A stretch of 64,000 bases of DNA from Verrucomicrobiota bacterium (GCA_029560585.1 JAKQKQ010000093.1:62001-126000); one strand, 5' to 3'; positions 26,339-43,382 are shown, counted from the first letter of the stretch. Numbers and translations: made by a program. The notes: generated by a model not told the origin, from the sequence alone.

Positions 26339-26454
26339 AGGCTGGACTCCGATATCTCCACGACACCGCAGTCGGCGAACGCGGGGATTTGGAAGATTCT
26401 GTTGGTCTGGCCCACCGCCTGGGCGGCCAGCGAGGTTGGGACGCCCCCTTCCAT
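26335..26454 (-). CDS. Possible small ORF or remnant of a lost gene
   Basis: In the gap between the DUF6259 stop (26557) and the ceramidase-like B start, one minus-strand frame is open from 26556 to 26335. It shows strongly GC-biased third positions like a real gene. Only its last 39 codons follow an ATG (26452-26454), beginning MEGGVPTSLAAQAVGQTN. The stop overlaps the next ATG as ATGA, the junction type used repeatedly in this window. No ribosome site is visible. I do not recognise the peptide. It could be the 3' end of a gene otherwise deleted. Confidence 0.3.
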   Translation of the reverse strand: MEGGVPTSLAAQAVGQTNRIFQIPAFADCGVVEISESSL

Positions 26455-26556
26455 GGGTGCGGAGAAGGTGCCCCGCGGCGCAATGTCCCACTCGGTTCCG
26501 AGACATTTGCCGGGAATGCTCGCGGCCTTGCGGGCCGAATATGGATGGCAAAGTCC

Positions 26557-29148
26557 TCATCTTGTCAGGCGCACCTCCCATGGCCGCAACGTGAAAGCGT
26601 GGCGTTGATCGCCCCAGATAAACCGGACCTCCTGCGGTCGGGTCGTCCAGTTTACCATGACGACCGCGCGCGATCCGTCGGGGGCCTCGAAAGCATTGTG
26701 GAGGACGGGCGGCAATCTCCGCGCGCCAGCCGCGACAGGGGCAGCGGTCTCCATCGGCGGCGGATGCAGCATCTTCCCGAGGAGAAGGTACGGGCGCCCC
26801 TCACCTTGATAGATCCCGATCCACTGTCGCATGAGCTCGTGATCCACTGGCCGCTCGGACCGCCGCACGTCCGCCGCGACGCCGTCGGGCAGGACCTCCT
26901 CAATCTTCAAATCGTCCAGCCAGACAGCGCCCGACCCCTCAAGCGCCAACATGACCCGCAGCACGGCCGTGCCCTCGGGCATGCAGAATTCGGCCTGCCG
27001 GAGCGACCACTCCGATTGATTGGCGGGGTATGGGATCTGCCATGTCTGAAGCGCGCTCATGCCGGGCGCGAATGCCTTTAAGACCACGCCGTTCGTTCCC
27101 GTTATCTGCTGGCTCCGCATCCACACGCTCAGCCGATAGGTTCTGCCCGGGCGAAAACTCTCGGTGGTCTCGTAATTCTGAGCCGCCAGGGCCTGACCTT
27201 TTCCCGAGGGGTTATACAATTTCAGGCTCGCTTGGCCGCCGTGGCGCTCCGCCCGATCGATCTCCGTTTCGCCCGCCGACCATCGTTCGCCCGGAAACAG
27301 CATCGTCCGGGCAAATTCGACGGGCCCCTCGTCGCTGCAGCGCTCGAAACCGCCATCGATCACCATCGGCCCAGACCCGGTCCCCATGCGAGGGGCCAGG
27401 GGGGGAATCTGCCCCTGCACCAGGCACCATGCCAGCGCCCAAGGATCGTGGCCCGTCTGCGGTCGATTGCTCTGGAACAGCGTGGGCAGATACTCGTGAT
27501 AGAGATACGCAAACACCGAAGCTGGCTCACGCCCGCTCCAGATCACGTCACAATCGCGGTAATCCTGAATGCCGATCTCCTGCAGGAACCATTCGTTGGG
27601 CTCCTCGAAACCGACCACCGTTTCCGGCTCTATCGCCCGGCAGTCGGCCGCCATGGTGCGCAGCTGTTTCCTAAAGACATCCGCGGACCATCGGCCGGGG
27701 CCGGGCGGGTGCCCGTGTGAGCGACTGTAGCAGACCTCCGATTTTCCCCCCACCACCTGGTCTATCTGTATCAGTTCGGCGCCGCGCCGCGCGCACTCGG
27801 CCGCCGAGCGATTGAGCCACGCGACGGTCCACGGATCACCAGGGCACATCACGCAGTGCTGCCCGCCGCGCAACCACGTGCAGTCCCTGACCATCGGTTT
27901 CCCATCGCGCCGCACGGCCGCGTGCGGGAGGCAGTTGGATTCGAGCTGATCCCGAATGTCCCAGAGAAAGCCGCCATCGGCCCGTTTCCCATAACTGAGA
28001 CTGTAGTTATAACCCGACGGCCACAGGAACGCGTGGGCGTTGATGTCCCGGCCACGGCGAATCAGCTGCCGGAAGCGCCCGTCGGAAGGATAGGCGGGAA
28101 AATATTCTGGCCCCACCCATTTGCCCACCTTCTCCCATCCCCAGTAGGCGACGATCAATGGCGCCCCCGGCGGGTACTCCTTCTGCCAATAGTCGCGGAA
28201 CCACGACTCGATCGACTCCGGCTCCGCGAGCCACGCGCGGGTGAAACGGACCATCGCCGCGCCCCCCTTGAGCCAGGCGGGCACATCGTCCCGCTCCGCG
28301 AACGTCCGCGCGCACCATGCCTGCTCTTTTGCCCATGCCTTGTAGAGATCGGCGGCGTCGCGCCAGTCGGTTGCGGCATCTTCCCGCGCGCTCGCGAAGC
28401 CAGTCAACACGATGTCGTAGGGCAATTTGAACTGATCGCGCTGGAAGCAGGGATATGTCCAACCCCAATCCATCCCAGTGGCCGTCCTCCTCATGAACAG
28501 GCTTTTCCGGTGCCCCTCTCCATCGAGGGCCGCTGTATACACCCCGCCTCTCTCCCCATAACAGCAACCAAAACCCGCCGCCAGACTGCCCGGCTGGTCA
28601 AAGCGCCTCGTCTCGCCCTCCTTCCAGTCGGACAACCTGTGGATGCCCCCTTTCGTCGCCCCAGCCACCGCGATATCGTGCGAACCGTTGGCACCGGCCG
28701 AGCCGATCGCCATGATGGGGTAGGTCACCGATTCCATGGTCACGCCGGAAGGCATCGTGGCCTCGAGCCCAAATCGCACCAGGCCGTCGCCCCCGCGGGT
28801 GAAAATCGTGCAGACGACGGAGATGGGTTGCCCCTCGAATCCCGTGAAAGTGACCCTCGCTCCGCGATCCGCGCCCCTCGACCAAGGCTCAACGCGGGCA
28901 CGCTCCGCCTGTCCCGCGTCACACGATTTCACGACACCCGGGGAATCATCCGCCCGCGAAAACTCGAACCGAAACAACGGCGCCGGTCTGGCCGCCGTGA
29001 CCCATTCCCGGCCGGACCGCTTGTCGACCACCGAACAAATCGACCCGCGCGAAGCCAGGGCCACCGCCACCCGATCGCTCTCCACGAGCGGCCGATCGCC
29101 CACATCCGCGCCCAGCACCGCGCCCAGCAGCAGCGAAGGTAAAAACAT
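26557..29148 (-). CDS. Secreted DUF6259-family glycoside-hydrolase-like protein (copy B)
   Basis: This is an 863-residue protein, closely similar along its length to copy A at 625-3213. The ATG at 29146-29148 starts the signal peptide MFLPSLLLGAVLGADVG. The longer frame to 29250 begins with TTG and runs into a palindromic repeat. Shared blocks are the N-terminal sandwich (ATKGGIHRLSDWKEG), the barrel strands LIVAYWGWEKVG and HAFLWPSGYNYSLSYGKR, and the acidic site LIQIDQVVGGKSE. The CenC-like module (NGGFERC at copy-A position, ending VWLDDLKIEEV) and the end FTLRPWEVRLTR are also shared. Reaction unknown; polysaccharide cleavage is inferred. No ribosome site is evident before the chosen ATG. 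Ceramidase-like B lies 218 bp downstream. Confidence 0.82.
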   Translation of the reverse strand: MFLPSLLLGAVLGADVGDRPLVESDRVAVALASRGSICSVVDKRSGREWVTAARPAPLFRFEFSRADDSPGVVKSCDAGQAERARVEPWSRGADRGARVTFTGFEGQPISVVCTIFTRGGDGLVRFGLEATMPSGVTMESVTYPIMAIGSAGANGSHDIAVAGATKGGIHRLSDWKEGETRRFDQPGSLAAGFGCCYGERGGVYTAALDGEGHRKSLFMRRTATGMDWGWTYPCFQRDQFKLPYDIVLTGFASAREDAATDWRDAADLYKAWAKEQAWCARTFAERDDVPAWLKGGAAMVRFTRAWLAEPESIESWFRDYWQKEYPPGAPLIVAYWGWEKVGKWVGPEYFPAYPSDGRFRQLIRRGRDINAHAFLWPSGYNYSLSYGKRADGGFLWDIRDQLESNCLPHAAVRRDGKPMVRDCTWLRGGQHCVMCPGDPWTVAWLNRSAAECARRGAELIQIDQVVGGKSEVCYSRSHGHPPGPGRWSADVFRKQLRTMAADCRAIEPETVVGFEEPNEWFLQEIGIQDYRDCDVIWSGREPASVFAYLYHEYLPTLFQSNRPQTGHDPWALAWCLVQGQIPPLAPRMGTGSGPMVIDGGFERCSDEGPVEFARTMLFPGERWSAGETEIDRAERHGGQASLKLYNPSGKGQALAAQNYETTESFRPGRTYRLSVWMRSQQITGTNGVVLKAFAPGMSALQTWQIPYPANQSEWSLRQAEFCMPEGTAVLRVMLALEGSGAVWLDDLKIEEVLPDGVAADVRRSERPVDHELMRQWIGIYQGEGRPYLLLGKMLHPPPMETAAPVAAGARRLPPVLHNAFEAPDGSRAVVMVNWTTRPQEVRFIWGDQRHAFTLRPWEVRLTR

Positions 29149-29222
29149 CACAGCGATTGCCGCGGAGTCTATCTCTCGGAATTGATAAATGCCATTCACT
29201 ATTTTAAGAACTCGGATAGCGG

Positions 29223-29343
29223 CCCGGGGCTTCTGGCTATTCGACAGCAACCTGTTGGAGTTCAGCCTCTAGGCTGAATCGGGCACGAAACAGGCCAGAG
29301 CATGGACTCCAACGGTTTCGGTCGAGCGAACCAAAAGCCCCGG
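29223..29343. repeat. 121-bp imperfect palindrome with 38-nt arms
   Basis: The arms at 29223-29260 and 29306-29343 are inverted copies, most alike at both ends (CCGGGGCTT.TGG and GTTGGAGT) with a divergent middle. An inner hairpin TCAGCCT-CT-AGGCTGA lies at about 29261-29276. The right arm ends exactly where similarity to a Gfo/Idh/MocA gene begins. This suggests a mobile or REP-type repeat sitting at a rearrangement junction. Confidence 0.6.
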
Positions 29344-29865: not shown

Positions 29866-31368
29866 CTATTCGACATCGATCTCCCCCACCCTGTACCGGC
29901 GTCTTCCGTCATCGCCGTTCAGGGGCAGGGCAATCACGGGAGTCCCATCGGCCATGCCGACCGAGACGAAGACGTCGTAAGTCCCCGTCTTCAGCGTGGG
30001 CACGTTCTCACCGAAGGGGGGATACGTCCCCCGTTCCTTCATCCGCAAGATGACGCCTTCATTGATCGTGGGAATCGGAGTGACGATGCCCACCCGGCAC
30101 GAAGACGCGTGTTTGATCTCCTTCGCCTTCCCCGGTTCCGCGGCCGGCAGCGACCTGACATCCAGCGACTGATCGCAGAGCACCCAGGCGATATCGCCCT
30201 TGCGATCTTTCAGCGCGAACGCGATGTTTCCCCCGCGATAGCAGGGGGCGACGCCCACGTTGGCCCATGTCGTTTCGATGGTGAACACCTCGTCCAGTTT
30301 GACCGATTTCGGCATGCGGACCTCGCGAAGCTCCAGACGATAGCCCAAGCGGAGATTGATCCTGTCGATCGCGTCCCGGTTTTCCCTCAGGTACGCCTCC
30401 GGCCAGCCGTGGATCGACATGTAACTGGCGCGGTATTCCTCCACGGATCGCACCAAAAGCTCCGGGTCCCACGACTTTTGAAACACCAGCCAATCGTAGT
30501 GGCCGTGCTCCAATATCACGGGAAGCGTCGGCCAGAACTGCTGGGCCATCTCGGCATGGAACCAGTGCCTCGGTGCCTTTCCCACCAGGATGCTGTCGTC
30601 GCGAAGCGTCACGCCCCGCGAGAACGCGTAATCGGTTGTCGGGAAGTGGGCGCCCGGCCGGGTGGGCCCGGCCACGTCATCGCTGATGGCCAACAGCGTA
30701 TCCGGAAAATACTTCTTATGGAGGTCGATGTGGAGTTTGACGGCACTGTCGGTCTGCTCCTGATTGAGTTTGGAGGAGTACCCCGTGTGGCCCTCCCCCC
30801 ACAGGCCGAATGAACCTATGTCGATGAACGCCACATCGGGATTGCCATTGTATCGTTTCGCCATTTCGGCGAGGAAATTCCCGAGCTTTTCGAGGAAAAC
30901 TGGGTCGTCGAAAACTGGATCCCAGAGCTTGGCCTCCGGGCTGTACTTCTGGCCCGACTGATAATAGATCCCTTTTGCGCCAGCGTCCTTGACCCATTCC
31001 GGGGTCGCGAATACGAAACGATCCTCACTGGCGATGACCCGAAAGGCGATCTTCTTTCCCCGGGCGATCCAGGGCTGCGCGTAAGAGTCGATGAGATCCC
31101 ATCGGAACTTCCCCTCTTGCGGTTCGAGGTAGCACCATGGGATGCGGAAGTAGATCGTCGAGCAACCGGGGAACCAGTCGAGTGTATCGCCCGGGGGCTG
31201 GAATCCGCCATAGGCCCAGAGCCGGTTCGAGTAATGGAAATGCACCCAGCCCATGCCGGGATTGATCAGGGCCTCCTTGGTCGCGGCCGGCCTGATGATC
31301 GAAATGTCGTCCTCCGCGATCGAGGAAAGGCAGAGCGACAACAATGAGGCACACAATATTCTTCTCAT
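29866..31368 (-). CDS. Secreted DUF4832 TIM-barrel protein (copy B)
   Basis: This is a 500-residue paralogue of the protein at 6429-7931. The ATG at 31366-31368 opens the signal peptide MRRILCASLLSLCLSSIAED; the ATG at 31383 is also possible. The barrel carries STIYFRIPWCYLEPQEG, GKKIAFRVIASED, VAFIDIGSFGLWGEGHTG and LPVILEHGHYDW. The beta-sandwich begins near ELREVRMPKSVKLDEVF. Both copies share the sentence-like core of PGAHFPTTDYAFSRGVTLRDDS. It is the last gene of the operon that includes LarA, MFS, dehydrogenase and GH16, 52 bp after the GH16 stop. Its place there suggests an exported glycan-active protein feeding the same pathway. The reaction is unknown. Confidence 0.85.
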   Translation of the reverse strand: MRRILCASLLSLCLSSIAEDDISIIRPAATKEALINPGMGWVHFHYSNRLWAYGGFQPPGDTLDWFPGCSTIYFRIPWCYLEPQEGKFRWDLIDSYAQPWIARGKKIAFRVIASEDRFVFATPEWVKDAGAKGIYYQSGQKYSPEAKLWDPVFDDPVFLEKLGNFLAEMAKRYNGNPDVAFIDIGSFGLWGEGHTGYSSKLNQEQTDSAVKLHIDLHKKYFPDTLLAISDDVAGPTRPGAHFPTTDYAFSRGVTLRDDSILVGKAPRHWFHAEMAQQFWPTLPVILEHGHYDWLVFQKSWDPELLVRSVEEYRASYMSIHGWPEAYLRENRDAIDRINLRLGYRLELREVRMPKSVKLDEVFTIETTWANVGVAPCYRGGNIAFALKDRKGDIAWVLCDQSLDVRSLPAAEPGKAKEIKHASSCRVGIVTPIPTINEGVILRMKERGTYPPFGENVPTLKTGTYDVFVSVGMADGTPVIALPLNGDDGRRRYRVGEIDVE

Positions 31369-31420
31369 GACTCGCACCAACATCGTATCTGACGGAGCAA
31401 CGGAATGGCGACATCCCTCG

Positions 31421-32302
31421 CTACGGCCCGGCCCGCGCATACGCCCGCACGTAATCGACTTCGAAATCGCGCGGGTACGCCATGTCCGGGTCGATCTTCC
31501 CGATCCAACCCGAGTATTGAAAGAGCGCCATCAGGATGAACATTTTCTCCTGCGGTGTAGGACCCGTGTAGGTCTTGATGACCTTGCCGTCCAGATACCA
31601 GTCGACCCGTCCCTCCTGCCACTCCATGGCCCAGACGTGGAAACCCATGGAGGCGTCAATGCCCACCTCCGGCCGGTAATGGGCCTCCTTGGTGAAATGG
31701 ACGTTGAGATCGACCTTGCTCGTCGCGTCGTGGATGTTCCGGCCCTGTAGCTCGAAGATATCGATTTCCAGGACGCCGTCGCCGATCGTCTTTCGGTGGC
31801 CGTCGGGTGTGTACTCCTGTTTTGTGGGATCATGCTGGTGCAGCCAGAAAGCGCTGAGCAGGCCCTCGCCGCGCGGACAGCGGCACCGGATCTCGAACCA
31901 GCCATACTTCTGGGCAAACTTGTCCAGTATCTGGAACTCGTTCGTCGTCGCGCCAAACCGGTGATCCGACGTCTGGATGCAACTCACGCACTGATCGCTC
32001 TTGTCCGCGCGATATGGCAAGGTCGCTCCTATCCGCAGCTTCAGGATCCCGTCCTCGATCACGTAGTGCGCGTTGTGATCGGTCCAGCGGCTCGCCTTCC
32101 CGATCCGCTTGAAGTACTCCTTCCGCCCGGACCTGTAGGCGGGAAACCAGTGCATGTCATTCAGCTGCGGCCTGTCAAACTCATCCTGGAAAACCAGCCT
32201 CCACCCCGGCTTGTCCGGCGGCGGGGCTGGCGCATCGGCGCCCAGGCCAATTGCTCCCAGCAGCGAGCATGCGAGAGTGACGTGCGGGGTCCTGATATTC
32301 AT
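31421..32302 (-). CDS. Secreted GH16-family endo-glycanase
   Basis: This is a 293-residue GH16 enzyme with signal peptide (MNIRTPHVTLACSLLGAIGLG). The family signature E-x-D-x-x-E reads LEIDIFELQG near residues 177-186; the first E is the nucleophile and the last the acid/base. LVFQDEFDRPQLND and WEMEWQ-type residues (HVWAMEWQEGRVDWYLDG) form the rest of the cleft. GH16 members cut beta-1,3/1,4-glucans, agarose, carrageenan or porphyran; the specificity is not clear from motifs. The ATG overlaps the stop of the dehydrogenase gene by 4 bp (ATGA), an unusual partner for a secreted glycanase. The length is normal for a single-domain enzyme with no added binding module. Confidence 0.93.
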   Translation of the reverse strand: MNIRTPHVTLACSLLGAIGLGADAPAPPPDKPGWRLVFQDEFDRPQLNDMHWFPAYRSGRKEYFKRIGKASRWTDHNAHYVIEDGILKLRIGATLPYRADKSDQCVSCIQTSDHRFGATTNEFQILDKFAQKYGWFEIRCRCPRGEGLLSAFWLHQHDPTKQEYTPDGHRKTIGDGVLEIDIFELQGRNIHDATSKVDLNVHFTKEAHYRPEVGIDASMGFHVWAMEWQEGRVDWYLDGKVIKTYTGPTPQEKMFILMALFQYSGWIGKIDPDMAYPRDFEVDYVRAYARAGP

Positions 32303-35253
32303 CGGCGCTCCGGAGAAACAAGCTCACGTCTCAAAATCTGGATCGGATGGAGGGCGGCCCGGCCGGTGCCACCGCGGATCTGGTGTCGGCAACTGGTGCC
32401 AGGGGCCGCGATGAGCGCGTCCGTCGGAAGTGCGCGCACGGCCGGGAACAGGACAAGTTCACCGATCTCTTGCGATAGCTGGTAGTGTTCGATCTCGTAT
32501 CCGAATGATCCCGCCATGCCGCAGCAGCCAGATGGGATCACGCGGACATCGAGGCCCGCTAGCCGCTCGAGGATGCGGACGGCGGACGAGAGCGAGGCGA
32601 TGGCCTTCTGCTGGCAATGGCCGTGCAGATGGACGGTCTTCTTCTCCTGGCGGAATGAGGCGGCGGTGATGCGGCCGGTATCCATTTCGCGGGCGAGGAA
32701 TTCCTCCACGAGCAGGGCGTTGCGTCCCAGTTCGCGGGCTTTGTCCTGCATATCTCCGCGCAAAAGGTCCGGGTATTCGTCGCGGAACGTGAGGATGGCC
32801 GACGGCTCCAGGCCGATCAGCGGGGTCGCATCACCCACGACTGGGTGCAGGAGACGGACATTCTGCTCCGCGAAACCACGGGCGCGGCGCAGAAGACCCT
32901 TGGAAAGGGAGGCCCGGCCACTTTCCACATGGGCCGGGATGACGACCTCATATCCAACTCCCTCCAGCAGTTCGACGGCCTCCATCCCCATCTCCACGTC
33001 ATTGAAATTGGTGAACTCGTCGCAGAAGAGAAGCACCCGAGAATTGTGGCCCGGCGCGCAGGATTCCCGCGGGCGCGAGTCAAACCACGCCTTCAGCGTA
33101 ATCTCTCCCAGAAGGGGAATGCTGCGATCGGGGTGGAAGCCGGCGAGCCGATTGGCTATGCGGCGCAGCCAGGGCGTGCCGAACACGAGATTCCATGCCC
33201 AGGGGGCAATCGACGCGAGGCGGGCGACATCGGCGAAGCGGGCGATCATCTGCGCGCGCCGCGGCGTGCCCCTCGCATCGTAGTAGTGCTGGAGGAATTC
33301 GGCCTTGAGCTTGGCGACATCCACATTGGACGGGCACTCCGACTTGCAACCTTTGCAGGAGAGGCAGAGATCCATCACGCCCTTGATCTCATCGCTGTCG
33401 AAGGGGTCCGCCGCGGCCGAGCGCGTCAGTATCTCGCGCAGCATGTTGGCCCGCCCACGGGTGGTGTCGTGCTCCCGCCTCGTGGCCATGTAGCTGGGGC
33501 ACATGGTTCCGCCCATGAGATGCGATTTGCGACAATCGCCGGAGCCATTGCATTTCTCGGCGGCGCGCAGATAGCCCCGCGTGGCGGAGAAATCGAAAAC
33601 CGTCTCGATCTCACGGGTGACCTGGCCGGGCTCGTAGCGAAGATGCGTATCCATCGGCGGCGCCGCGGTGATCTTGCCGGGGTTGAAGATGCCGCGCGGG
33701 TCCCACGTGTTTTTCGTGGCGACAAGGTGCTGGTAGTTCCGGTCGCCGACCATCATGGGCAGGAACTCGCCGCGCAGCCGCCCATCGCCATGCTCCCCGC
33801 TCAACGAGCCGCGGTAGCGCTTCACGAGCCGCGCGGCCTCGGTGGCGATGATACGAAAGCGCCGCCGATCTTCGTCGGATTTGAGATCCAGGATGGGCCG
33901 CAGGTGCAATTCGCCGGAAGCGGCATGACCGTAGTGCACGCACTCCATGGAGTGCTCGCGCAGGAGCGCATCCATGTCGCGAACAAAGGCGGGCAGATCG
34001 GCGGGATCGACGGCGGTGTCCTCGATGACGGCGACGGGCTTGGGATCGCCGGGCAGGTTGGCCAGGAGGCCAAGCGCCGCCTTGCGCAGGTCCCACACGC
34101 GGCCCTGGTCCGCGCCCCACACGACAGTAATACTCTGGCCGAGCCCCGCGGCCCGGAGATCGGCCTCCAGGCGCGCGGCGGCGCCTTCGACCCCCTCGCG
34201 GTTTTCGGCGGCGAGTTCGACCGCTAGGATGGCCTCCGGTTCGCCCTGAATGAAGAAGCGGTTCTGGCGCTGGCCGATGTTGGCCTTCGTGCAGTCGAGG
34301 ATGTAGCGATCGAGCAGCTCGCCGGAGCGCGGCGAATGCCGCAGGGCGATGAGGTTTGCCCGCAGGGCCTCGTCGATGCTGGCGCAATGGATACAGATGA
34401 GCGCACTCTCCCTGGGCGGCAGTGAAACGCAGCGCAGGGTGATTTCCGTGAGGAAGGCGAGCGTGCCCTCCGAGCCGGCGATCAGGCGGCAGAAATTGAA
34501 TGGCGGTCCACCCGGCGCGAATGGCGAGCATTCCGCGAGCAGGTCCAGCGCGTAGCCCGTGTTCCGCCGGTGGATGCCCGGTTTCGGGAACTCGCGTGCG
34601 ATCTCCGCCCGGTTGGCCTCATCCGCGAGCAGGTCGCGCGCCTGTCTATATAGGACGCTTTCCAGCGATCCTCCCCCGCACTTTGCCGCAAACTCCTCGT
34701 TGGCCACCTCGCCGAACTCGGCCGCCGAGCCGTCGCTCAGCACCGCCCGCACGGAGATCAGGTGGTCGCGCGTGCTGCCATAGATGACGGAATTCGCGCC
34801 GCAGGCGTTGTTTCCCACCATGCCGCCGATCATCGCGCGGTTCTGTGTCGAGGTCTCCGGCGCAAACTGGAGGCCGTGCGGTCTCAGCGCGAGATTGAGT
34901 TCATTGCGCACGACCCCGGGCTGCACGCGGGCCGTGCGCGCCACCGGATCGATCGCGATGATGCGGGTCAAATGTCGCGACACGTCCACGACGATGCCGG
35001 CGCCCACCACCTGGCCCGCAAGCGAAGTCCCGGCCGCGCGCGGGATCAGGGGGACACCATGCGCGCGCGCGAAAGCCACCAGCCTCCGCACGTCCTCCTC
35101 CTGCTTCGGAAAAGCGACGGCGAGAGGCACCTCGCGATACACCGACGCATCCGTGGCATAGAGGATGCGCGATGCGCCATCGACATGCAGTTCGCCCTCG
35201 AGCGAGGAGGCCAGTTGCAACCAGGGGACGCCGGGGACCGATGGGGATTTCAT
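32299..35253 (-). CDS. FAD-linked 2-hydroxyacid dehydrogenase fused to Fe-S/CCG domain (D-lactate dehydrogenase type)
   Basis: This is a 984-residue fused flavo-iron-sulfur dehydrogenase without signal peptide. The FAD-binding PCMH domain is at about 30-210 (VPLIPRAAGTSLAGQVVG, IGGMVGNNACGANS) and the FAD-oxidase C-terminal domain runs to about 530. An Fe-S domain follows with cysteine sets CNGSGDCRKS..GTMCPSY and LCLSCKGCKSECPSNVDV, two [4Fe-4S] clusters. The CCG (heterodisulfide-reductase-type) region ends it (HGHCQQKA, IPSGCCGMAG). Such proteins oxidise D-lactate, glycolate or other 2-hydroxy acids to 2-keto acids and pass electrons to quinone. The gene overlaps MFS upstream and GH16 downstream by ATGA. 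Partnership with LarA argues for a chiral 2-hydroxy acid substrate. Sugar-acid oxidation is an alternative. Confidence 0.92.
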   Translation of the reverse strand: MKSPSVPGVPWLQLASSLEGELHVDGASRILYATDASVYREVPLAVAFPKQEEDVRRLVAFARAHGVPLIPRAAGTSLAGQVVGAGIVVDVSRHLTRIIAIDPVARTARVQPGVVRNELNLALRPHGLQFAPETSTQNRAMIGGMVGNNACGANSVIYGSTRDHLISVRAVLSDGSAAEFGEVANEEFAAKCGGGSLESVLYRQARDLLADEANRAEIAREFPKPGIHRRNTGYALDLLAECSPFAPGGPPFNFCRLIAGSEGTLAFLTEITLRCVSLPPRESALICIHCASIDEALRANLIALRHSPRSGELLDRYILDCTKANIGQRQNRFFIQGEPEAILAVELAAENREGVEGAAARLEADLRAAGLGQSITVVWGADQGRVWDLRKAALGLLANLPGDPKPVAVIEDTAVDPADLPAFVRDMDALLREHSMECVHYGHAASGELHLRPILDLKSDEDRRRFRIIATEAARLVKRYRGSLSGEHGDGRLRGEFLPMMVGDRNYQHLVATKNTWDPRGIFNPGKITAAPPMDTHLRYEPGQVTREIETVFDFSATRGYLRAAEKCNGSGDCRKSHLMGGTMCPSYMATRREHDTTRGRANMLREILTRSAAADPFDSDEIKGVMDLCLSCKGCKSECPSNVDVAKLKAEFLQHYYDARGTPRRAQMIARFADVARLASIAPWAWNLVFGTPWLRRIANRLAGFHPDRSIPLLGEITLKAWFDSRPRESCAPGHNSRVLLFCDEFTNFNDVEMGMEAVELLEGVGYEVVIPAHVESGRASLSKGLLRRARGFAEQNVRLLHPVVGDATPLIGLEPSAILTFRDEYPDLLRGDMQDKARELGRNALLVEEFLAREMDTGRITAASFRQEKKTVHLHGHCQQKAIASLSSAVRILERLAGLDVRVIPSGCCGMAGSFGYEIEHYQLSQEIGELVLFPAVRALPTDALIAAPGTSCRHQIRGGTGRAALHPIQILRRELVSPERR

Positions 35254-36578
35254 GGTTTCGAAAGGGATTCGTCGTTCCGGTGCAGCCGCGCCGCGAGCAC
35301 CAGCGCGGCGGTCATGGCCGCCGAGCCCGCCAGCACCAGCACGCCCGCGGTGTAGCCGCTGGTGCGCTCGCGCAGCCAGCCCATCGCGTAGGGGCCGACG
35401 AAACTACCCAGATTGCCGATGGAGTTGATCAGCCCGATCGCCGCGGCGTTGGCGGTGCCGGCGAGGAAGCTCGTCGCATAGGCCCAGAAACTGGGCGTGT
35501 AGCCCGTCATTCCAATGACCCCGATGCACAGGCACACCAGGGCCAGGATAAGGCGGCCCTGCACGAGCGCGCCCGCCGCAAGTCCCGCGCTCCCCAGCGC
35601 CAGGAGTCCCGCCGTGTGCCAGCGACGTTCGCCGGTTCGATCCGAGGACCATCCCGCCACCAGTTTTGCCGCCACGCCCAGCGAATAGGGCAGCGATACG
35701 AGTAAAGCCACTGTCACGTTCGGGAGGCCCGACAGCGATTTGACCATGGTCGGCAACCAGTAGCTCAGGCCGTTCGACGCGATCAAGCCGAAGAAATACG
35801 CCGCCGAGAACAGCAGCACCTGCGGATCGCGGAGCGCCTGAAAAACTGTCTGCGCGCGATGTCGCCCGGCGTGCGCCTTTGACGCGCGTTCGCGCTCGAG
35901 TTCGCCCACGAGCCAGGCCCTCTCATCATCCGGTAGCCACCGCGCGTCCCCGGGCCGCTCCGTCAGAAAAAACCAGCTGGCGATGCCAAGCGCGATCGCG
36001 GGCACGCCTTCCATGATGAACAGCCAGCGCCAGCCCGCGAGGCCGAGCCAATCGAGCTTCAATAGCGCCCCCGACACCGGCCCGCCGATGACCATCGCCA
36101 AAGAGATCGCCGACATGAACAGCGCGACCGCCTTGCCCCTGTCCGCGGCACGGAACCAGTTATTGAGATAGACGATCATCGCCGGGAAAAATCCCGCCTC
36201 CGCCGCGCCGAGCAGAAAGCGCAGCCAGTAGAACTGGTGCGCGTCGCGGATGAAGCCCATCGCGACTGCCAGCGCCCCCCACGACAGCATGATGCGGCAC
36301 ACCAGCCTGCGGACACCCCAGCGCGCGGCGAAGACAGCGCCCGGCACCTCGAGCAGGAAGTAGCCGACAAAGAAAATGCCCGCGCCGAACCCGTAGGTGG
36401 CCGCTGTGAAATTCAGGTCCGCCGTCATCTCCAGTGCCGCATAACTCACATTCACCCGGTCGAGATAGGCGATGACATAGAGCAGGCACAGATATGGCAT
36501 CAGCCGCCACATGACCCGGCGCCGGGCTCGCGCGCCCACGTCGGGCAAAGCCATGCTTGAGCTAGCCATCCGAATCAT
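35250..36578 (-). CDS. MFS transporter, anion:cation symporter (ACS) type
   Basis: This is a 442-residue carrier with about twelve membrane segments. The ATG at 36576-36578 overlaps the LarA stop as ATGA, so coupling decides the start. ACS-family marks include YLCLLYVIAYLDRVNVSYA in helix 1, the GAGIFFVGYFLLEVPG segment, and AAEAGFFPAMIVYLNNWF. FLTERPGDARWLPDDERAWL is the cytoplasmic loop with the ACS-typical W-L-x-x-x-E/D-E pattern. The ACS family carries organic anions such as D-galactonate, glucarate, tartrate and phthalate with protons or sodium. In this operon the cargo is probably the acid that LarA and the flavo-dehydrogenase process. The exact acid is unknown. Confidence 0.93.
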   Translation of the reverse strand: MIRMASSSMALPDVGARARRRVMWRLMPYLCLLYVIAYLDRVNVSYAALEMTADLNFTAATYGFGAGIFFVGYFLLEVPGAVFAARWGVRRLVCRIMLSWGALAVAMGFIRDAHQFYWLRFLLGAAEAGFFPAMIVYLNNWFRAADRGKAVALFMSAISLAMVIGGPVSGALLKLDWLGLAGWRWLFIMEGVPAIALGIASWFFLTERPGDARWLPDDERAWLVGELERERASKAHAGRHRAQTVFQALRDPQVLLFSAAYFFGLIASNGLSYWLPTMVKSLSGLPNVTVALLVSLPYSLGVAAKLVAGWSSDRTGERRWHTAGLLALGSAGLAAGALVQGRLILALVCLCIGVIGMTGYTPSFWAYATSFLAGTANAAAIGLINSIGNLGSFVGPYAMGWLRERTSGYTAGVLVLAGSAAMTAALVLAARLHRNDESLSKP

Positions 36579-37876
36579 GTGCGCCTGATGACGGGCAGAG
36601 TGAGCATCGCGCGCGGCACGATCAGCACCCGGCAGGCGGGACCCAGTCTCGCACTCGCGAATTCCAGCGCCTCGGCCATCGTCGCCGCGGGGATCATTTT
36701 GCAGGCGGAGACCAGATCCGGGCACTCGCTCCCCACGATGATGACATGCGATTCCTCCAGCACCTTGGCCATCACAAAGGCCCTCTGCTGGCCGGGGGGA
36801 TACCCGTTGCGCCGGGCATCATCCAGAATGGACTGGATATTTGGCGCATCCCGCATGGCGGCCAAGAAACGCTTTTCTCCCACGCCGACTCCCGCGCCCT
36901 CCTCGCAGCGGGCCGGGATGATGAAGAACCCGCCCTTTCGGACGACCGGGACCGGGGCGAAGAAAAGGTACGAGGGGGCGCGGCTGGCCTGATATAGGTT
37001 GGTATCCTTCGGAAATCCGACCCCTCCAATGGCGATGTCATACTGCTGCGGGATGGCAACCTCAAATACGGATTTCGCGAAACCCACCAGATCGCGGAAG
37101 GCCAGTTCGGGATCTCCCGCGGCCACCCGCAGCAATCGTTTGTCATCATCCAGCACGACATTGAGGATGAATCGGAGCCGGGCGCGGCGGGCGGCTTCGT
37201 TGACCGCGTCCTGGAAGGGGTTGCCCTCGATCTGCCCGAGCCGGGTCCCGGGATGATCGAGGAACGCCGGACCGTGGGTGTGAGTGATGAGCGGTTCCCC
37301 GGCGGCGCCGACAGCGACGGTCTTGCCCCCGGCCGAATAGCCCGCGTACTGGTGCGGCTCGACGATGCCGGTGGAAACCAGCAGATCGGCCTCGACTGCG
37401 GCGCGATGGATCAGGACGGGCACGCCGCCCGGTGTGACGCCGAGATTCATCAGGGCCGCCGGGTTCTGGGGCTCGTTGTCGATGACACGGTATCGGGCAA
37501 CGACCTCGGCGCCCAACTTGGTGACCTTCTCTTCCTTCGAGGACGGCCGATGCATCCCAATGCCACACAACAGGGTGATATCCTCATCCCGCACCCCGGC
37601 ATTCTCCAGTTCACGCAGCAGGGCCGGGACGAGCAGGTCGTCGGGACTGGCGCGGGTGACATCGGTGAACACAATGCATGCGCGGTTGCCGGGTTTGGCC
37701 AAATCCCTGAGCGGCGATGACCCGATGGGATGATCGAGCGCCTCTCGGATGGCAGCCGTCGCGTCCTCCAGGGGCGTCGTCGGCCGCGAGACAACCAGCG
37801 TGGCTCGCATGTCCGGGGGCAGGCTGAATTCCAGGAAAGACTTGCCGTACGGGATGCGGTACATTTTGGGTTTCAC
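36575..37876 (-). CDS. larA: LarA-family nickel-pincer 2-hydroxyacid racemase/epimerase
   Basis: This is a 433-residue cytoplasmic protein. It starts with GTG at 37876, overlapping the upstream DUF6259 stop as GTGA. LarA enzymes invert the carbon carrying the hydroxyl by hydride transfer to a pyridinium nickel-pincer cofactor. The key residues of Lactobacillus LarA (H108, H174, K184, H200) correspond here to H109 (GMHRP), H175 (EPHQYAGY), K185 (SAGGKTV) and H201 (ITHTHGP). Both the cofactor lysine and the catalytic histidines are therefore kept. Cofactor-building genes larB, larC and larE are not in the window. The wider family also covers malate, hydroxyglutarate, phenyllactate, gluconate and short aldonate enzymes, so lactate is not assured. 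Genes for an acid carrier and a 2-hydroxyacid dehydrogenase follow. Confidence 0.92.
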   Translation of the reverse strand: MKPKMYRIPYGKSFLEFSLPPDMRATLVVSRPTTPLEDATAAIREALDHPIGSSPLRDLAKPGNRACIVFTDVTRASPDDLLVPALLRELENAGVRDEDITLLCGIGMHRPSSKEEKVTKLGAEVVARYRVIDNEPQNPAALMNLGVTPGGVPVLIHRAAVEADLLVSTGIVEPHQYAGYSAGGKTVAVGAAGEPLITHTHGPAFLDHPGTRLGQIEGNPFQDAVNEAARRARLRFILNVVLDDDKRLLRVAAGDPELAFRDLVGFAKSVFEVAIPQQYDIAIGGVGFPKDTNLYQASRAPSYLFFAPVPVVRKGGFFIIPARCEEGAGVGVGEKRFLAAMRDAPNIQSILDDARRNGYPPGQQRAFVMAKVLEESHVIIVGSECPDLVSACKMIPAATMAEALEFASARLGPACRVLIVPRAMLTLPVIRRT

Positions 37877-40314
37877 TTTCGATCGTTGCGCGGGGTTTGT
37901 TGCGCGAACTGCTCTGCGCGGCGGGCCTCCTCCACGATCCCGGCCCCGCGGTGCACGAGCAACACGGCGGATAGCACCTCTGGCGGCACCCGGACCGACA
38001 CCTTCGTGCCGGACGCATCGGGGCTAACCGGCCGCACGTCGCCGCCGAGCGCGGCAACGGCCGCCTCCCGCACCGGCCCCGGCGCGCCCATGTCCTCCAC
38101 TTCCACCTTGGCCTCGGTGAGGGCATCGTGATTGTAAACAGTCAACAGTGTCACCTTTCGGTCGGGTTCGTTGAGCATGAATCGTTTGACGCGGACCCGG
38201 GGGTCACTGACCGTAACGCCCAGGTCGTCCATGAAGCGCGCCCGGTAAAGGACATGTTTGATTCTCCGGCGCAGATCGAGGACCAGCGCGGTATGCCGCG
38301 TCAGGACCTCTGGCTGGGCGTAGACCAGGAAGCGATTTCCGAGGAGGAAGACTTCGTTGAGGGTCTCGGCGGGCGAGCGAAGCGTGGGGGGGCCCTGGAT
38401 CCGCCAAAATCCATCGAAGAAGATGTGGTCCGGAAATGTGTATCGTGTGAGTTCGGGATACGAGTCGGGCCAAAAACCGGTGGAGGAGGGCGCGATGAAG
38501 AAGGAGTCGAAGTATGCGGAGTACGCGTCCCCGTAGCCTTCGGTCTCCATGGCAAATTCCGGCTGTATGCGGCGCGCGTTCTCCTTGATGCGCTTGGCCA
38601 GTGCCACGAAACCCTGCGCCCACGCGCCGTGGTGGGCATGCCCGTGCGCCGGGTTGAAACAATACTTGGCGGAATCCGCGCCGATCTGGTCGAGGAACAT
38701 CGCATCCGTGCCGTACTGCCTCACATACTTTTCGACTGTCCAGTAGTGAAGGTGGTCCTGCCACCCTTTCGCTGCCGAGCACATGAAGTAGAAGAGGGAG
38801 TCGTAGGGCGATCCGGCCGGGGGCGATGGCCAATGTCCCGATGCCCTCTTGTACTGCGGATAGAGCGTGCCGTCGTAGTGCATCAGGGCGTTGTCCTTGA
38901 AACCGCCCTCCCAGTCCGGAATCGGCACCGTCGCGGGAATTTTTCCCGCACACTCGGGCGGGGCCTGGGGCCAGCGCGGGTCCCATGCCTGACCATTGAT
39001 GTAGAATGCCGCGTGACCACCCTGCCCGCGGACCGATCGGATCACTTCCGCGAACTCGCGTTCCGTCCCCATCAGCGGGTCGGGAAAGGGAAAGCGGTTG
39101 CAGCGGTGCTTGCCCGCCGACACGCTAGCGACCATCTGTCCACCAAAGCGCGCGAAGTTCAGACCGTAGCCCCGAGCCAGCTGCATTTTCTCAACAATGT
39201 CCTTTGCGAATCGGCCATTCCCGCCGAGGGGCAGAGTCCATTCCAGTCGGCCATCGCACTCCTTGAGCCATCGTGGGGGATCCGGGGGCGGCGACCAATT
39301 GTTGAACCACTCCCGGTACGAGTCGGCGGCAGCATGCCAGTCACCGGCGTGGACCCCCGTCACGAATTCGGATGACGACCAGCGCGCGCCGTTCGGCACG
39401 TGGGCGAACTTGCTCATCTGGAGAGTCAAGGCGCCGCCGTCGCCGGAAGGCCGACTGTCCAACCCAGTCATCAGCAACGTCGGATCATAACTGGCAAAGT
39501 ACAGACCGCAGGCAGCCTTTCCCCCATTCTCCCCCGTGCCGCTTGGCCTGCTGAACAGGTCTACCCAGGGCATTGTGGCGCGACCACCCACATACTCGCC
39601 ACTGCGTTTGCCGTTCTTCTGGGGATTGGCGATCAGGTGCCCGGCCCCCCACGCGGGCCAGGTGAGAAAGTTGTCCTCGCTGCGCGGGCCGATGCGAAGG
39701 CCGCCCAGGACCGGAAATACGACCTCCACGATCTCCAGGCCCTCGGCCTGATTGTGGACGGCAATGGTCCACCGCACTTCATTGCTCGCGTCTCCCAAGG
39801 TCGCCTGACACATGACCTGTGCGGTGCCCCCGGCACGCCCTGCCACCCTATAATCGAACCGCAGCGTCTGCCCCCCATCGCCCCTGGTCAGCACGTGCCC
39901 TGTCAGCGAACCGGGCTCGGGCGAAAGGACCCCCACCTTTTTCGTCCTGCCGTCGAAATATCTCAGATTGAAAAGTGAGGGGGCCGACGCGCCCACCGTA
40001 TAGTCCTCGCCCAGCGCGCGGTTCCGGATGGAGATCAGGGTGCCATCGGTTACATCGAACCGCATCGAGAGTTGATTATTCCCAAGTTCAACCACCTTGG
40101 CCGACCCGCTGCCGATCGTTTTCTGCGAATCGTCTCCTGTGGACCGTCCTTCCTGGACGAGCCCCATCACCGCCAATGCCGCCGGGAGCGCCAGCTGCCC
40201 TAAGCGGCCGTGGCTCAATCGCGCGGGCAACCGGTTGCGTCGATCCCTCGGGGCGAGTCTTTCGGTGCGGCATCTTCTGGAAACAAGAGAATCAAGCGAA
40301 GCCATCCTGCACAT
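37873..40314 (-). CDS. DUF6259-family glycoside-hydrolase-like protein (copy C)
   Basis: This is an approximately 813-residue, divergent third DUF6259 protein. The start at 40314 is tentative, since no clear ribosome site is seen. The hydrophobic export segment (LALPAALAVMGLVQEG) begins about 35 residues in, so the true start may lie further in. The sandwich has QLSMRFDVTDGTLISIRNR. The barrel holds NFARFGGQMVAS, GGHAAFYINGQAWD, and the acidic site AMFLDQIGADSAKY at the position of IDQVVG in copies A and B. The CenC-like module of A and B is absent. Its stop overlaps the LarA start (GTGA), making it the first gene of the LarA operon. The reaction is unknown; it may produce the sugar or acid processed downstream. 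Confidence 0.78.
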   Translation of the reverse strand: MCRMASLDSLVSRRCRTERLAPRDRRNRLPARLSHGRLGQLALPAALAVMGLVQEGRSTGDDSQKTIGSGSAKVVELGNNQLSMRFDVTDGTLISIRNRALGEDYTVGASAPSLFNLRYFDGRTKKVGVLSPEPGSLTGHVLTRGDGGQTLRFDYRVAGRAGGTAQVMCQATLGDASNEVRWTIAVHNQAEGLEIVEVVFPVLGGLRIGPRSEDNFLTWPAWGAGHLIANPQKNGKRSGEYVGGRATMPWVDLFSRPSGTGENGGKAACGLYFASYDPTLLMTGLDSRPSGDGGALTLQMSKFAHVPNGARWSSSEFVTGVHAGDWHAAADSYREWFNNWSPPPDPPRWLKECDGRLEWTLPLGGNGRFAKDIVEKMQLARGYGLNFARFGGQMVASVSAGKHRCNRFPFPDPLMGTEREFAEVIRSVRGQGGHAAFYINGQAWDPRWPQAPPECAGKIPATVPIPDWEGGFKDNALMHYDGTLYPQYKRASGHWPSPPAGSPYDSLFYFMCSAAKGWQDHLHYWTVEKYVRQYGTDAMFLDQIGADSAKYCFNPAHGHAHHGAWAQGFVALAKRIKENARRIQPEFAMETEGYGDAYSAYFDSFFIAPSSTGFWPDSYPELTRYTFPDHIFFDGFWRIQGPPTLRSPAETLNEVFLLGNRFLVYAQPEVLTRHTALVLDLRRRIKHVLYRARFMDDLGVTVSDPRVRVKRFMLNEPDRKVTLLTVYNHDALTEAKVEVEDMGAPGPVREAAVAALGGDVRPVSPDASGTKVSVRVPPEVLSAVLLVHRGAGIVEEARRAEQFAQQTPRNDRK

Positions 40315-40412: not shown

Positions 40413-41726
40413 TCACTTCGCGGCGGATTCCAGCAGGGACACGCACGCCAGTTCGCGTCCATCGCGGGCGAAGATGTATCTTCCGGCGAAGGCGGGGTGC
40501 GCCCACGTCTTGCCGATGACCTTGGTGCGCGATCGCTCGTCATAACCGGTTGGATTGAGTCGAGCGAGGATGAGATCGCCTTCGGCATTGAGGATGATCG
40601 CGCGGTCCGCGTCATTGAGCCACACGAGGCTCGCCTGGGGATCGCGGCCCCGGGGCGTCATCCGGTGGCCGTCGTCCCAAAGTTTTTCGCCAGTCCTCAA
40701 CTTGAAGCACGTCAGTCCGGAAGATCTATCGAGCAAGTAGACATAGCCGTCGCGGTACAGTGGCTGGGACATCTCGCCACGAAGTTGGCCTTGCTCCCAG
40801 AGCAAGGTCGCGCCCTGCTCGAGACGGATCGCCTTCGATCCCTCCCAATAGCCGCTCACGAAAACGATTCCCTCTTGGAAGATCGGAGAGGCGATTGAGA
40901 CCGCGTAGGTGACTTTATAGGGGATAGCCCACAGCGATCTGCCGTCACGGGGATCGAGCCCGCGGATGTATTCGGGTGTCCAGCAGACGAGCTGTGGTCG
41001 CCCGTTATGCTGGATCAGGATCGGCGTGCAGTAGCCGCAGGGGTCGGGCGCACCGCGCCAGACCTCCTTGCCGGTCCCGCGGTCGAGCGCGATGTAGCAG
41101 CCGTCGGGAACCGCGCCGACGTGGAGGATCACAAGATTCTCGAAGAGCAGAGGCGATGCGGCGAATCCCCATGTTGGCAGGCGCGCGCCATGGTCGCGCA
41201 CCATGTCTATCGACCATATCGCCTTGCCCGTGACCGCATCGAGGCAGAGGGCGTGGCCCAGCGCACCGAGCGTGTAGACGCGGCCATCGCTCACGGTTGG
41301 TGCCGCGCGCGGGCCGTTGCCGTGCTGCAGGCCCCGATAGACCGCCCCGTACGCATGGGCCCAGAGTTCCTTGCCGGATGCCGCATCGAAGCAGAGCACC
41401 CGCTCCATCTCCTCCTGCGACCTCTGGAGATCCATCGTGTAGACCCGGCCGCCGGCCACCACCACGCCCGCGTCGCCGCCGCCGACAGACCTGCGCCATA
41501 TTTCCCGCAAACCCTCCGACGGCCATCGCTCCGGAAGCTTTGGCGCATTCCAGGTACCGTCGCCGCGCGGGCCCCTCCACCGTGGCCACTCTTCGCCGAC
41601 GGTTGCGGCCAGCGATGACCGCGGCGCGTCTGCCGCGCGCGCCACACCCATGCACCCGATCGCACAAACGATGAAGATGCGCAGACCGTCTCGCACGAGG
41701 CCATCCCGAGAATCTGTCGGGCTCAT
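40413..41726 (-). CDS. Exported PQQ-like beta-propeller protein
   Basis: This is a 437-residue protein. An ATG at 41726 (preferred over TTG at 41729) opens a signal peptide ending near VARAADA. EEWPRWRGPRGDGTW is the usual opening of planctomycete PQQ-propeller proteins. At least five blade repeats end in G-x-x-L-W or close variants: FDAASGKELWAH, LDAVTGKAIWSI, LDRGTGKEVWRG, LDPRDGRSLWAI, FKLRTGEKLWDD. The catalytic residues of true PQQ alcohol dehydrogenases are not evident. It may be a BamB-like scaffold or a propeller that binds a ligand. It lies 98 bp upstream of the DUF6259 copy C gene on the same strand and downstream of ceramidase-like C. A role in the operon is possible but not shown. 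Confidence 0.85.
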   Translation of the reverse strand: MSPTDSRDGLVRDGLRIFIVCAIGCMGVARAADAPRSSLAATVGEEWPRWRGPRGDGTWNAPKLPERWPSEGLREIWRRSVGGGDAGVVVAGGRVYTMDLQRSQEEMERVLCFDAASGKELWAHAYGAVYRGLQHGNGPRAAPTVSDGRVYTLGALGHALCLDAVTGKAIWSIDMVRDHGARLPTWGFAASPLLFENLVILHVGAVPDGCYIALDRGTGKEVWRGAPDPCGYCTPILIQHNGRPQLVCWTPEYIRGLDPRDGRSLWAIPYKVTYAVSIASPIFQEGIVFVSGYWEGSKAIRLEQGATLLWEQGQLRGEMSQPLYRDGYVYLLDRSSGLTCFKLRTGEKLWDDGHRMTPRGRDPQASLVWLNDADRAIILNAEGDLILARLNPTGYDERSRTKVIGKTWAHPAFAGRYIFARDGRELACVSLLESAAK

Positions 41727-41774
41727 CAAACTCTTAGAAACAGCCAGGGATTCGCTGGGGAAATCCCTTCGACA

Positions 41775-43259
41775 CTATTTCTCCCAGAGTTCGCAGATCG
41801 TCTCGACAGTGCGATCGACCAGGACCTGCCCTCCCTCTGGACCGACCATGTTGCTCATGATGGTGGCACTATAGTTGGTGAAGGGATTTCCATCCAACGT
41901 CCCGCCCGCGACCGCGCGCGGCGTCGGCAGATAGTAGGCGGGTTCCCGCCCGGAGGAGGCCAATTGGATCAGGAAGGTCTGGACGGCCGGACTGCGCGCC
42001 TCGATCTGAACGCCGTAGTCGACAAATAGCTCGAAAGGATTCGTTGCGATGGCCACGTCTCCCAATCGCAACACATGCATCTCCATCGCATAAGTTTTCC
42101 GTTCGCCCTTCTGTTGGGCGAGATATCGTTCGGCCACCAGCCCATAGAAATCTCGGGTCCAGTGATCGGTCTTCTTCCGCGTCTTTCTGCCGTCGATTTC
42201 CTCGCACACCTTCTTGGCGACCGCATGTTCGTCGGCGGTGACGATACGCGCGGGCAATTCGATCGGCCGGACCCTATGGGCGAACGGCACGTCCGCCCGG
42301 ATGTCTTTGGCGATGACGTCGGCCACATCTTCGAAGGCGCCGGCGACACGGCGACCGATCTCTTGGCCATAGGTCAGGCCACGGAGTTCGCACATCCGCT
42401 GTTCGGCCTTGCGGTGCACCTGCAACCGCGGGGTCTGGTCGCCGGCCGCGGCGCAGAATCCCAGCACGCAGACATCCGCGCCGTGCCGCTCGCGGATCAG
42501 TCGCCTGGCCTCGGCCCAGAAATCCGCGCTGACCTTGATGCCGCCCTCGGCCTGGGCCGTCGTCGCCAGGCTGAGCGCCGCAGCTTTCAACCGCCTCTGC
42601 GGGTCGTAAAAGCACAGCACCTGGACCGCGTGGTCCTCATAGCCCTCGATATGGCGAAATTTGGGATCCTTCATGTCGCCATACATCTTTACCGTGCCAT
42701 CGCTGTATGTGACGCGGCGATTGTGACCCGCGACGGCCTGCCCCAGCCCCCACGCGACGGCCCCCGCCGCCCGACTCTCCCAGGCCCTCACGACCGCCGC
42801 GGCCATCCGCTCGTACATCCAGGGCACGTACTCCTTCGGCTGCATGGCATCCTCGTAATCCCTTTCGTCATACCGGTCCTGGGCGATAACAGGCGCCGTA
42901 TGCGTGTGCGTCGCGGCCATGAAAAGCTTGCTCATGTCGAAGCCCGGCAACCGCCCGGCCAGATGCTTGCGTAATCCGTCCTGGATCCCCGGCCGGATGA
43001 CGCACAGATCGCAGGAGATCATGATCGCCTGATCGAGCACCTTTTCGCCATCTCGCGACTCCAAGGCCAGGACGCTGGCCGTCAGGCGGCTCTGTATCTC
43101 ACGCCCGATGCGGACGGACGTGTTGCCGGTCAGGGGGACGGGCCGGTCCGGCGTGATGTCGGCCGTGGCGGCCCCAATCCAGAGTTCGGCGGCTTGAATC
43201 GGGAATACCGCCAGTCCGAGCCACAGAACGAGCCAGTTGGCCCAAACGATGAAATGCAT
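41775..43259 (-). CDS. Neutral-ceramidase-superfamily protein (copy C), altered active site
   Basis: This is an exported 494-residue protein. The ATG at 43257-43259 has AGGAATTGAAGGG upstream and starts the signal peptide MHFIVWANWLVLWLGLAV. The opening IGAATADITPDRPVPLTGN and the first zinc site AATHTHTAP are intact. The second zinc histidine is missing: the expected F-x-x-H segment reads ALSLATTAQAEGG. The nucleophile position reads AAAGDQTP, with threonine in place of the GDVSP serine. The C-terminal AYYLPTPRAVAGGTLDG fits the family. With two key sites changed, it may be a binding protein or use different chemistry. It lies upstream of the PQQ-propeller gene with a 48-bp gap. Confidence 0.82.
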   Translation of the reverse strand: MHFIVWANWLVLWLGLAVFPIQAAELWIGAATADITPDRPVPLTGNTSVRIGREIQSRLTASVLALESRDGEKVLDQAIMISCDLCVIRPGIQDGLRKHLAGRLPGFDMSKLFMAATHTHTAPVIAQDRYDERDYEDAMQPKEYVPWMYERMAAAVVRAWESRAAGAVAWGLGQAVAGHNRRVTYSDGTVKMYGDMKDPKFRHIEGYEDHAVQVLCFYDPQRRLKAAALSLATTAQAEGGIKVSADFWAEARRLIRERHGADVCVLGFCAAAGDQTPRLQVHRKAEQRMCELRGLTYGQEIGRRVAGAFEDVADVIAKDIRADVPFAHRVRPIELPARIVTADEHAVAKKVCEEIDGRKTRKKTDHWTRDFYGLVAERYLAQQKGERKTYAMEMHVLRLGDVAIATNPFELFVDYGVQIEARSPAVQTFLIQLASSGREPAYYLPTPRAVAGGTLDGNPFTNYSATIMSNMVGPEGGQVLVDRTVETICELWEK

Positions 43260-43382
43260 CCCTTCAATTCCTACGAGCGCCCGCGGTGTGGATTTAGCCA
43301 TGAGAAGAAATGTATATTATCTTTGAATTATTCGAAGCAAGCCGGAAACGCCGGCCCTTCGCCATCAGCCCCGGGCCTGACA

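What the first reader, a model, noticed from the sequence alone, without database searches (positions are those of the whole stretch)
31368..40314. Coupled operon linking glycan enzymes to a nickel-pincer hydroxyacid pathway
Six minus-strand genes run DUF6259, LarA, MFS (ACS type), FAD/Fe-S dehydrogenase, GH16, DUF4832. The four junctions from DUF6259 to GH16 are 4-bp overlaps (GTGA, ATGA, ATGA, ATGA), and DUF4832 follows after 52 bp. LarA keeps H109, H175, K185 and H201, equivalents of the Lactobacillus cofactor and catalytic residues. LarA-family enzymes also act on gluconate and short aldonates, and ACS carriers move sugar acids. A plausible, possibly undescribed route is: external glycan breakdown, import of a sugar-derived 2-hydroxy acid, C2 inversion, then oxidation to a keto acid. 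No lactate-specific genes are present.
Basis: partly seen in the sequence, partly recalled or inferred. Interest (0 to 1): 0.78.

Follow-up and report, generated by a model that had tools for sequence, protein, structure and literature searches.

The report
Laterally acquired nickel hydroxyacid racemase operon
A bacterium has placed a nickel-using enzyme that flips small hydroxy acids, apparently acquired from a distant bacterial group, between a transporter and an oxidising enzyme of its own; together they probably use up a malate-like acid, and the neighbouring sugar-polymer genes look like chance company.

Summary
The gene list, four 4-bp overlaps and the four named LarA residues are confirmed, though DUF4832 lies outside the stated interval. 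larB, larC and larE exist elsewhere in the genome. The core reading (import, C2 inversion, FAD/Fe-S oxidation) is supported. The glycan link and the aldonate substrate are not. LarA is 56-79% identical to a clade centred on Chloroflexota and was not found in 383 other genomes of its class. All 77 relatives examined share a signature: Q-Y after the second catalytic histidine, Arg in place of catalytic Lys298, and Q-R at the specificity positions. This is closest to malate racemases and unlike gluconate epimerases, and no NCBIfam subfamily model covers it. In those relatives FAD and Fe-S dehydrogenase genes follow LarA in 24 of 54 loci (12-23-fold enriched near LarA). Here a fused dehydrogenase of the window's own phylum fills that place. 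None of the 80 LarA loci carries the MFS, DUF6259 or DUF4832 neighbours. The GH16 stands alone in a relative, and DUF6259 has about 24 matches in this genome. Best explanation: a laterally acquired NPN racemase, probably for a malate-type 2-hydroxydiacid, joined to a transporter and a D-2-hydroxyacid dehydrogenase.

The parts
36575..37876 (-). LarA homologue (433 aa), NPN-dependent 2-hydroxyacid racemase/epimerase of an uncharacterised clade
   Evidence: Pfam Lar_N + LarA_C; model pLDDT 92, TM 0.90 to Isosphaera pallida LarA; signature Q176 Y177 R299 Q364 R365 invariant in 77 relatives
35250..36578 (-). MFS carrier of the anion:cation symporter type (442 aa); start ATG inside ATGA overlap
   Evidence: MFS_1; TIGR00893 galactonate transporter subfamily 286 bits, below cut-off 395; DgoT best solved relative, 46.8 bits
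32299..35253 (-). Fused FAD/Fe-S D-2-hydroxyacid dehydrogenase (984 aa)
   Evidence: FAD_binding_4, FAD-oxidase_C, Fer4; YdiJ model 617 bits, below cut-off 1350, and GlpC-like C-terminus; 57-61% relatives in the same class
37873..40314 (-). DUF6259 protein, probable exported glycoside-hydrolase-like enzyme
   Evidence: Pfam DUF6259 91 bits; low-confidence model resembles GH129/GH36/GH101 folds
31421..32302 (-). GH16 endo-beta-glucanase-like enzyme with intact EIDIFE catalytic motif
   Evidence: Glyco_hydro_16 57.6 bits; nearest solved relatives are beta-1,3-glucanases/laminarinases
29866..31368 (-). DUF4832 protein, 52 bp after GH16
   Evidence: DUF4832 42.6 bits; spacing
40413..41729 (-). PQQ/BamB-type beta-propeller protein, possible first gene of the transcription unit
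   Evidence: PQQ_2 96.6 bits; about 98 bp gap to DUF6259; terminator-like hairpin upstream at 41768-41746 (consensus match only)

Best explanation
The middle of the operon is a small catabolic module for a short 2-hydroxy acid, most likely a four-carbon diacid such as malate (tartrate or 2-hydroxyglutarate less likely). The MFS carrier imports the acid; LarA, with a nickel-pincer cofactor made by LarB/LarC/LarE encoded elsewhere in the genome, inverts C2; the fused FAD/Fe-S enzyme oxidises the D-isomer to the 2-keto acid and passes electrons to its Fe-S domain and on to the respiratory chain. The larA gene came by horizontal transfer from a Chloroflexota-like lineage and was joined to a dehydrogenase native to this bacterium's phylum, which stands in for the separate FAD and Fe-S subunits that accompany it in the source lineage. 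The DUF6259, GH16 and DUF4832 genes are probably co-transcribed but not part of that pathway. Shown: gene order, overlaps, cofactor genes, signature residues, phylogenetic position, conserved pairing with FAD/Fe-S dehydrogenases. Inferred: transfer direction, substrate, transport and direction of flux.
For: Genes and 4-bp overlaps. larB, larC and larE over cut-offs in the genome. The 80 best LarA loci (56-79% identity) are mostly Chloroflexota, with Acidobacteriota, Cyanobacteriota and deltaproteobacteria; the window sequence nests among Anaerolineales (SH-aLRT 84-88, quick tree); absent from 383 other genomes of the class. Fe-S and FAD subunits follow larA on the same strand within 5 kb in 24 of 54 loci, 12- to 23-fold enriched near LarA versus further away; Ldh_2, malic enzyme and PEP carboxykinase are further neighbours in subsets. 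Signature Q-R at the positions that are H/Q-K in malate racemases (PMC11770544); best NCBIfam model is LarAH6 malate racemase, 344 bits. D-2-hydroxyglutarate dehydrogenases of some species also oxidise D-malate (PMC9504171).
Against: No model cut-off is reached for any LarA subfamily, so the substrate is a guess from four residues and neighbourhood; the same literature warns that context often misleads (PMC7583248). Lys298 to Arg could alter the reaction. The MFS has its best model match with galactonate carriers, not diacid carriers. In some Chloroflexota loci LarA lies near IolN and other inositol or sugar-acid genes. YdiJ of E. coli does not oxidise malate (PMC9504171).
Confidence: 0.5

Rival explanations
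1. One reading: exported glycan enzymes release a sugar-derived 2-hydroxy acid, the carrier imports it, LarA epimerises it at C2 and the dehydrogenase makes a keto acid; the six genes form one functional route.
For: Tight overlaps link DUF6259 to LarA and the dehydrogenase to GH16; MFS resembles galactonate carriers; elsewhere in the same genome a 43% MFS paralogue adjoins a DUF6259 gene (C204); some Chloroflexota LarA relatives lie near IolN-type genes.
Against: The glycan genes are not beside any of 80 related LarA genes; GH16 travels without LarA; DUF6259 is multicopy; specificity residues are not those of gluconate epimerases; GH16 of the laminarinase type would release neutral glucans, not acids.
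Confidence: 0.12
2. A lactate (or glycerate/2-hydroxybutyrate) racemase feeding a D-lactate dehydrogenase: ordinary lactate use.
For: Closest solved relative is the broad short-chain racemase of Isosphaera pallida; LarA lactate racemase model 316 bits; FAD/Fe-S dehydrogenases commonly oxidise D-lactate or glycolate; Ldh_2 neighbours in relatives.
Against: Lactate racemases carry F, F, W, E/Q at the four specificity positions (PMC11770544); here Q, Y, Q, R in all 78 sequences. No lactate permease found beside it. A separate SAR-like LarA exists in the genome (C142).
Confidence: 0.2
3. The overlaps are a fortuitous assembly: LarA was inserted into a pre-existing gene string and the operon members share transcription only.
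For: Gene order unique to this contig among genomes searched; dehydrogenase stands alone in 26 related genomes; GH16 stands alone in G400.
Against: The LarA plus FAD/Fe-S dehydrogenase pairing recurs in other phyla with a different gene architecture, which chance would not give.
Confidence: 0.15

Closest known systems
LarA-superfamily malate racemases (LarAH5/LarAH6, Mar1/Mar2)
   Same: Fold, NPN-binding residues, two catalytic histidines, H/Q at the Trp358 position and a basic residue at the Thr359 position; best NCBIfam score
   Different: Score 344 against cut-off 500; Arg instead of Lys298, Arg instead of Lys at the 359 position, Q-Y loop, short insertion after Arg299
Isosphaera pallida LarA (Sar, LarAH2; PDB 9EIA/9EID)
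   Same: Closest solved structure, 256 bits, TM 0.90
   Different: Pocket residues L-M and W-Q versus Q-Y and Q-R here
LarAH gene neighbourhoods with COG0277/COG0247 dehydrogenases (Desguin et al. 2020, PMC7583248)
   Same: LarA homologues beside FAD and Fe-S oxidoreductases already reported for several LarAH groups
   Different: Here a fused single-chain dehydrogenase, an MFS carrier, and glycan-enzyme flanks
YdiJ D-2-hydroxyglutarate dehydrogenase (PMC9504171)
   Same: Fused FAD plus Fe-S architecture, same order of domains
   Different: 617 bits against cut-off 1350; C-terminal half closer to GlpC; substrate untested

Membership tests
LarA superfamily (NPN-dependent racemase/epimerase) | Lar_N and LarA_C domains over cut-off | tested here: met
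   195.9 and 53.6 bits; AlphaFold model TM 0.90 to 9EID
LarA superfamily (NPN-dependent racemase/epimerase) | NPN-binding Arg75, Lys184, His200 and catalytic Asp72, His108, His174 | tested here: met
   R75, K185, H201, D72, H109, H175
LarA superfamily (NPN-dependent racemase/epimerase) | Lys298 (carboxylate-binding/catalytic; reported missing in some LarAH groups of unknown substrate, so not strictly defining) | tested here: not met
   Arg299 here and in all 77 relatives; PMC7583248
LarA superfamily (NPN-dependent racemase/epimerase) | Cofactor genes larB, larC, larE in the genome | tested here: met
Malate racemase (LarAH5/6) | NCBIfam equivalog cut-off | tested here: not met
   344.1 of 500 and 309.6 of 462 bits
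Malate racemase (LarAH5/6) | H/Q and K at positions 358/359 | tested here: inconclusive
   Q364 and R365: basic but Arg
Malate racemase (LarAH5/6) | Malate racemisation | not testable with these tools
   needs enzyme assay
D-gluconate 2-epimerase (GntE) / hexonate epimerase | E, V, A, H at the four specificity positions; model cut-off | tested here: not met
   Q, Y, Q, R; 19.6 of 500 bits for NF052594
Lactate racemase (LarAH1) | F, F, W, E/Q at the specificity positions; cut-off 460 | tested here: not met
   Q, Y, Q, R; 316 bits
YdiJ D-2-hydroxyglutarate dehydrogenase | NCBIfam equivalog cut-off | tested here: not met
   617.5 of 1350 bits
Galactonate transporter subfamily (TIGR00893) | Subfamily cut-off | tested here: not met
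   286.1 of 395 bits
GH16 | Domain over cut-off and E-x-D-x-x-E catalytic motif | tested here: met
   57.6 bits over 22; EIDIFE in the translation

The most novel reading that the evidence does not exclude
The Chloroflexota-centred LarA clade, with Arg in place of Lys298 and an invariant Q-Y/Q-R pocket, is a new substrate class of nickel-pincer enzymes dedicated to a hydroxy-diacid (or other acid) not yet assigned, working as a relay with FAD/Fe-S dehydrogenases, and has been captured here into a glycan-use operon.
Probability: 0.25. Interest if true: 0.6.

Novelty: new variant of a known kind. Interest (0 to 1): 0.4.

Why it matters
Many LarA homologues lack an assigned substrate. This one belongs to a clade present in many Chloroflexota genomes, with a fixed and unusual active-site signature that no curated subfamily model covers, and with a repeated dehydrogenase partner that gives a direct assay for its product. 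It also shows the same two-step chemistry assembled from differently organised dehydrogenases in different phyla.

Tried and rejected
Search for the full gene order: no match in 80 LarA loci from 84,980 genomes, nor this LarA in 388 phylum or 384 class genomes. Neighbours of the fused dehydrogenase in 26 related genomes: no shared partner, so no substrate clue. Neighbours of the GH16 relative in G400: nothing shared. MFS relatives: beside methylmalonyl-CoA mutase-type and PrpD-type genes in one genome, no clear substrate. DUF6259 model was low confidence (pLDDT 50); its fold matches (GH129/GH36/GH101, TM about 0.4) are only suggestive. Promoter scan found no minus-strand promoter-like sites and fewer sites than shuffles, so it says nothing. 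MAG contamination as source of LarA was considered: the gene is joined by overlaps on both sides to other genes of a 148-kb contig, one of them a dehydrogenase typical of the phylum, so unlikely. The careful LarA tree did not finish; the quick tree is used.

Full report
Observation. The window is part of a 148-kb contig (C146) of a 7.06-Mb, 336-contig assembly. The six genes, their order and the overlaps are as described. The stated interval starts at the start codon of DUF4832, so that gene itself lies outside (29866-31368). A PQQ-type propeller gene lies about 98 bp upstream. Most genes of the window share this strand, so the overlaps, not the shared strand, are the evidence for co-transcription.

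LarA. It has both LarA domains, and a confident model (pLDDT 92) that superposes on Isosphaera pallida LarA with TM 0.90. Asp72, Arg75, His109, His175, Lys185 and His201 are kept, but the residue equal to Lys298 is Arg299. Lys298 helps bind the substrate carboxylate in the I. pallida enzyme (PMC11851776) and is listed as catalytic in PMC7583248. At the four positions tied to specificity the protein has Gln, Tyr, Gln, Arg. Published signatures are F, F, W, E/Q for lactate racemases; E, V, A, H for gluconate epimerases; Y, F, H/Q, T for hydroxyglutarate racemases; and variable, variable, H/Q, K for malate racemases (PMC11770544). The window protein is nearest to the last. NCBIfam gives the same order: malate racemase LarAH6 344 bits, lactate racemase 316, LarAH5 310, LarAH10 270, hexonate epimerase 20, all below their cut-offs. 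Sixteen clade members were scanned; judging from their best E-values none should reach a cut-off either.

Relatives. A scan of one genome for each of 84,980 species returned 80 loci at 56-79% identity: mostly Chloroflexota (Anaerolineae), with some Acidobacteriota, Cyanobacteriota and deltaproteobacteria. All 77 sequences aligned keep Q-Y, Arg299 and Q-R. The window sequence branches among Anaerolineales with modest support. It was not found at comparable similarity in 388 genomes of its phylum or 384 of its class; the same-genus genome has only a 32% paralogue. Horizontal acquisition is the simplest reading.

Neighbourhood in relatives. GlcF-like Fe-S and GlcD-like FAD subunits follow larA on the same strand within 5 kb in 24 of 54 loci with enough sequence. 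Per 100 kb, hits are 5.2 and 5.1 within 5 kb of larA against 0.43 and 0.22 further away. Ldh_2 dehydrogenase, malic enzyme, PEP carboxykinase, pyruvate dehydrogenase parts and, in one subset, IolN and an IclR regulator are further neighbours. In the window the same role is taken by a single 984-aa FAD/Fe-S protein whose best relatives (57-61%) are in the same class and stand alone there. The pairing of LarA with a flavin/Fe-S dehydrogenase therefore occurs in two architectures, which argues for a real functional link. LarA homologues near COG0277 and COG0247 genes were already noted for several groups (PMC7583248).

Cofactor. LarB, LarC and LarE are each present over cut-off on other contigs. 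Two further LarA homologues exist (C142, C304).

Glycan genes. None of the 80 LarA loci has the MFS, DUF6259 or DUF4832 genes, and only one has distant GH16 hits (about 25% identity, nearly 5 kb or more away). The GH16 (intact EIDIFE motif, nearest to beta-1,3-glucanases) has a 77% relative in G400 without these partners. DUF6259 has about 24 matches in this genome, several on this contig, so finding one next to LarA is weak evidence. A low-confidence model of it resembles GH129/GH36/GH101 hydrolases. One counter-observation: elsewhere in this genome (C204) an MFS paralogue (43%) adjoins a DUF6259 gene, so a link between this carrier family and DUF6259 is not excluded.

Mechanism. Best-supported: uptake of a short 2-hydroxy acid, C2 inversion by NPN-LarA, oxidation of the D-isomer by the FAD/Fe-S enzyme. 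Substrate: malate-type diacid about 0.35, lactate-type about 0.2, aldonate about 0.1, other or unknown the rest (judgement). D-2-hydroxyglutarate dehydrogenases of some species oxidise D-malate as well, although E. coli YdiJ does not (PMC9504171).

Verdict. Observation confirmed; interpretation partly supported. The LarA clade with its Arg299 signature and repeated dehydrogenase partner is more interesting than the glycan link.

Noticed in passing
L184 (G000:C204:50000-69000), 8398-12182: A second DUF6259 gene overlaps an ACS-type MFS gene (43% to the window MFS) in the same genome, suggesting a recurring DUF6259-MFS pair.
   Followed up: partly
L014 5482-12285 and L013, L018, L088: In some Chloroflexota and Acidobacteriota the LarA clade lies near IolN (3-dehydro-scyllo-inosose hydrolase, 479 bits, over cut-off 245), an aldehyde ferredoxin oxidoreductase, a branched-chain-type ABC transporter and, in some loci, an IclR regulator.
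   Followed up: partly
L003 787-2253 (G000:C304): A third, divergent LarA homologue next to a LacI-type regulator in the same genome.
   Followed up: no
window 20808-22370, 24878-26581, 41775-43301: Three proteins with weak neutral-ceramidase domain matches within 23 kb.
   Followed up: no
window 625-3294, 26557-29250, 37873-40314: Three DUF6259 genes in one window, about 24 matches in the genome; the family has no paper in the searched library.
   Followed up: partly
window 3349-4803, 8033-12139: A sulfatase and a GH2 with CBM60 modules: other polysaccharide-related genes on the same contig.
   Followed up: no
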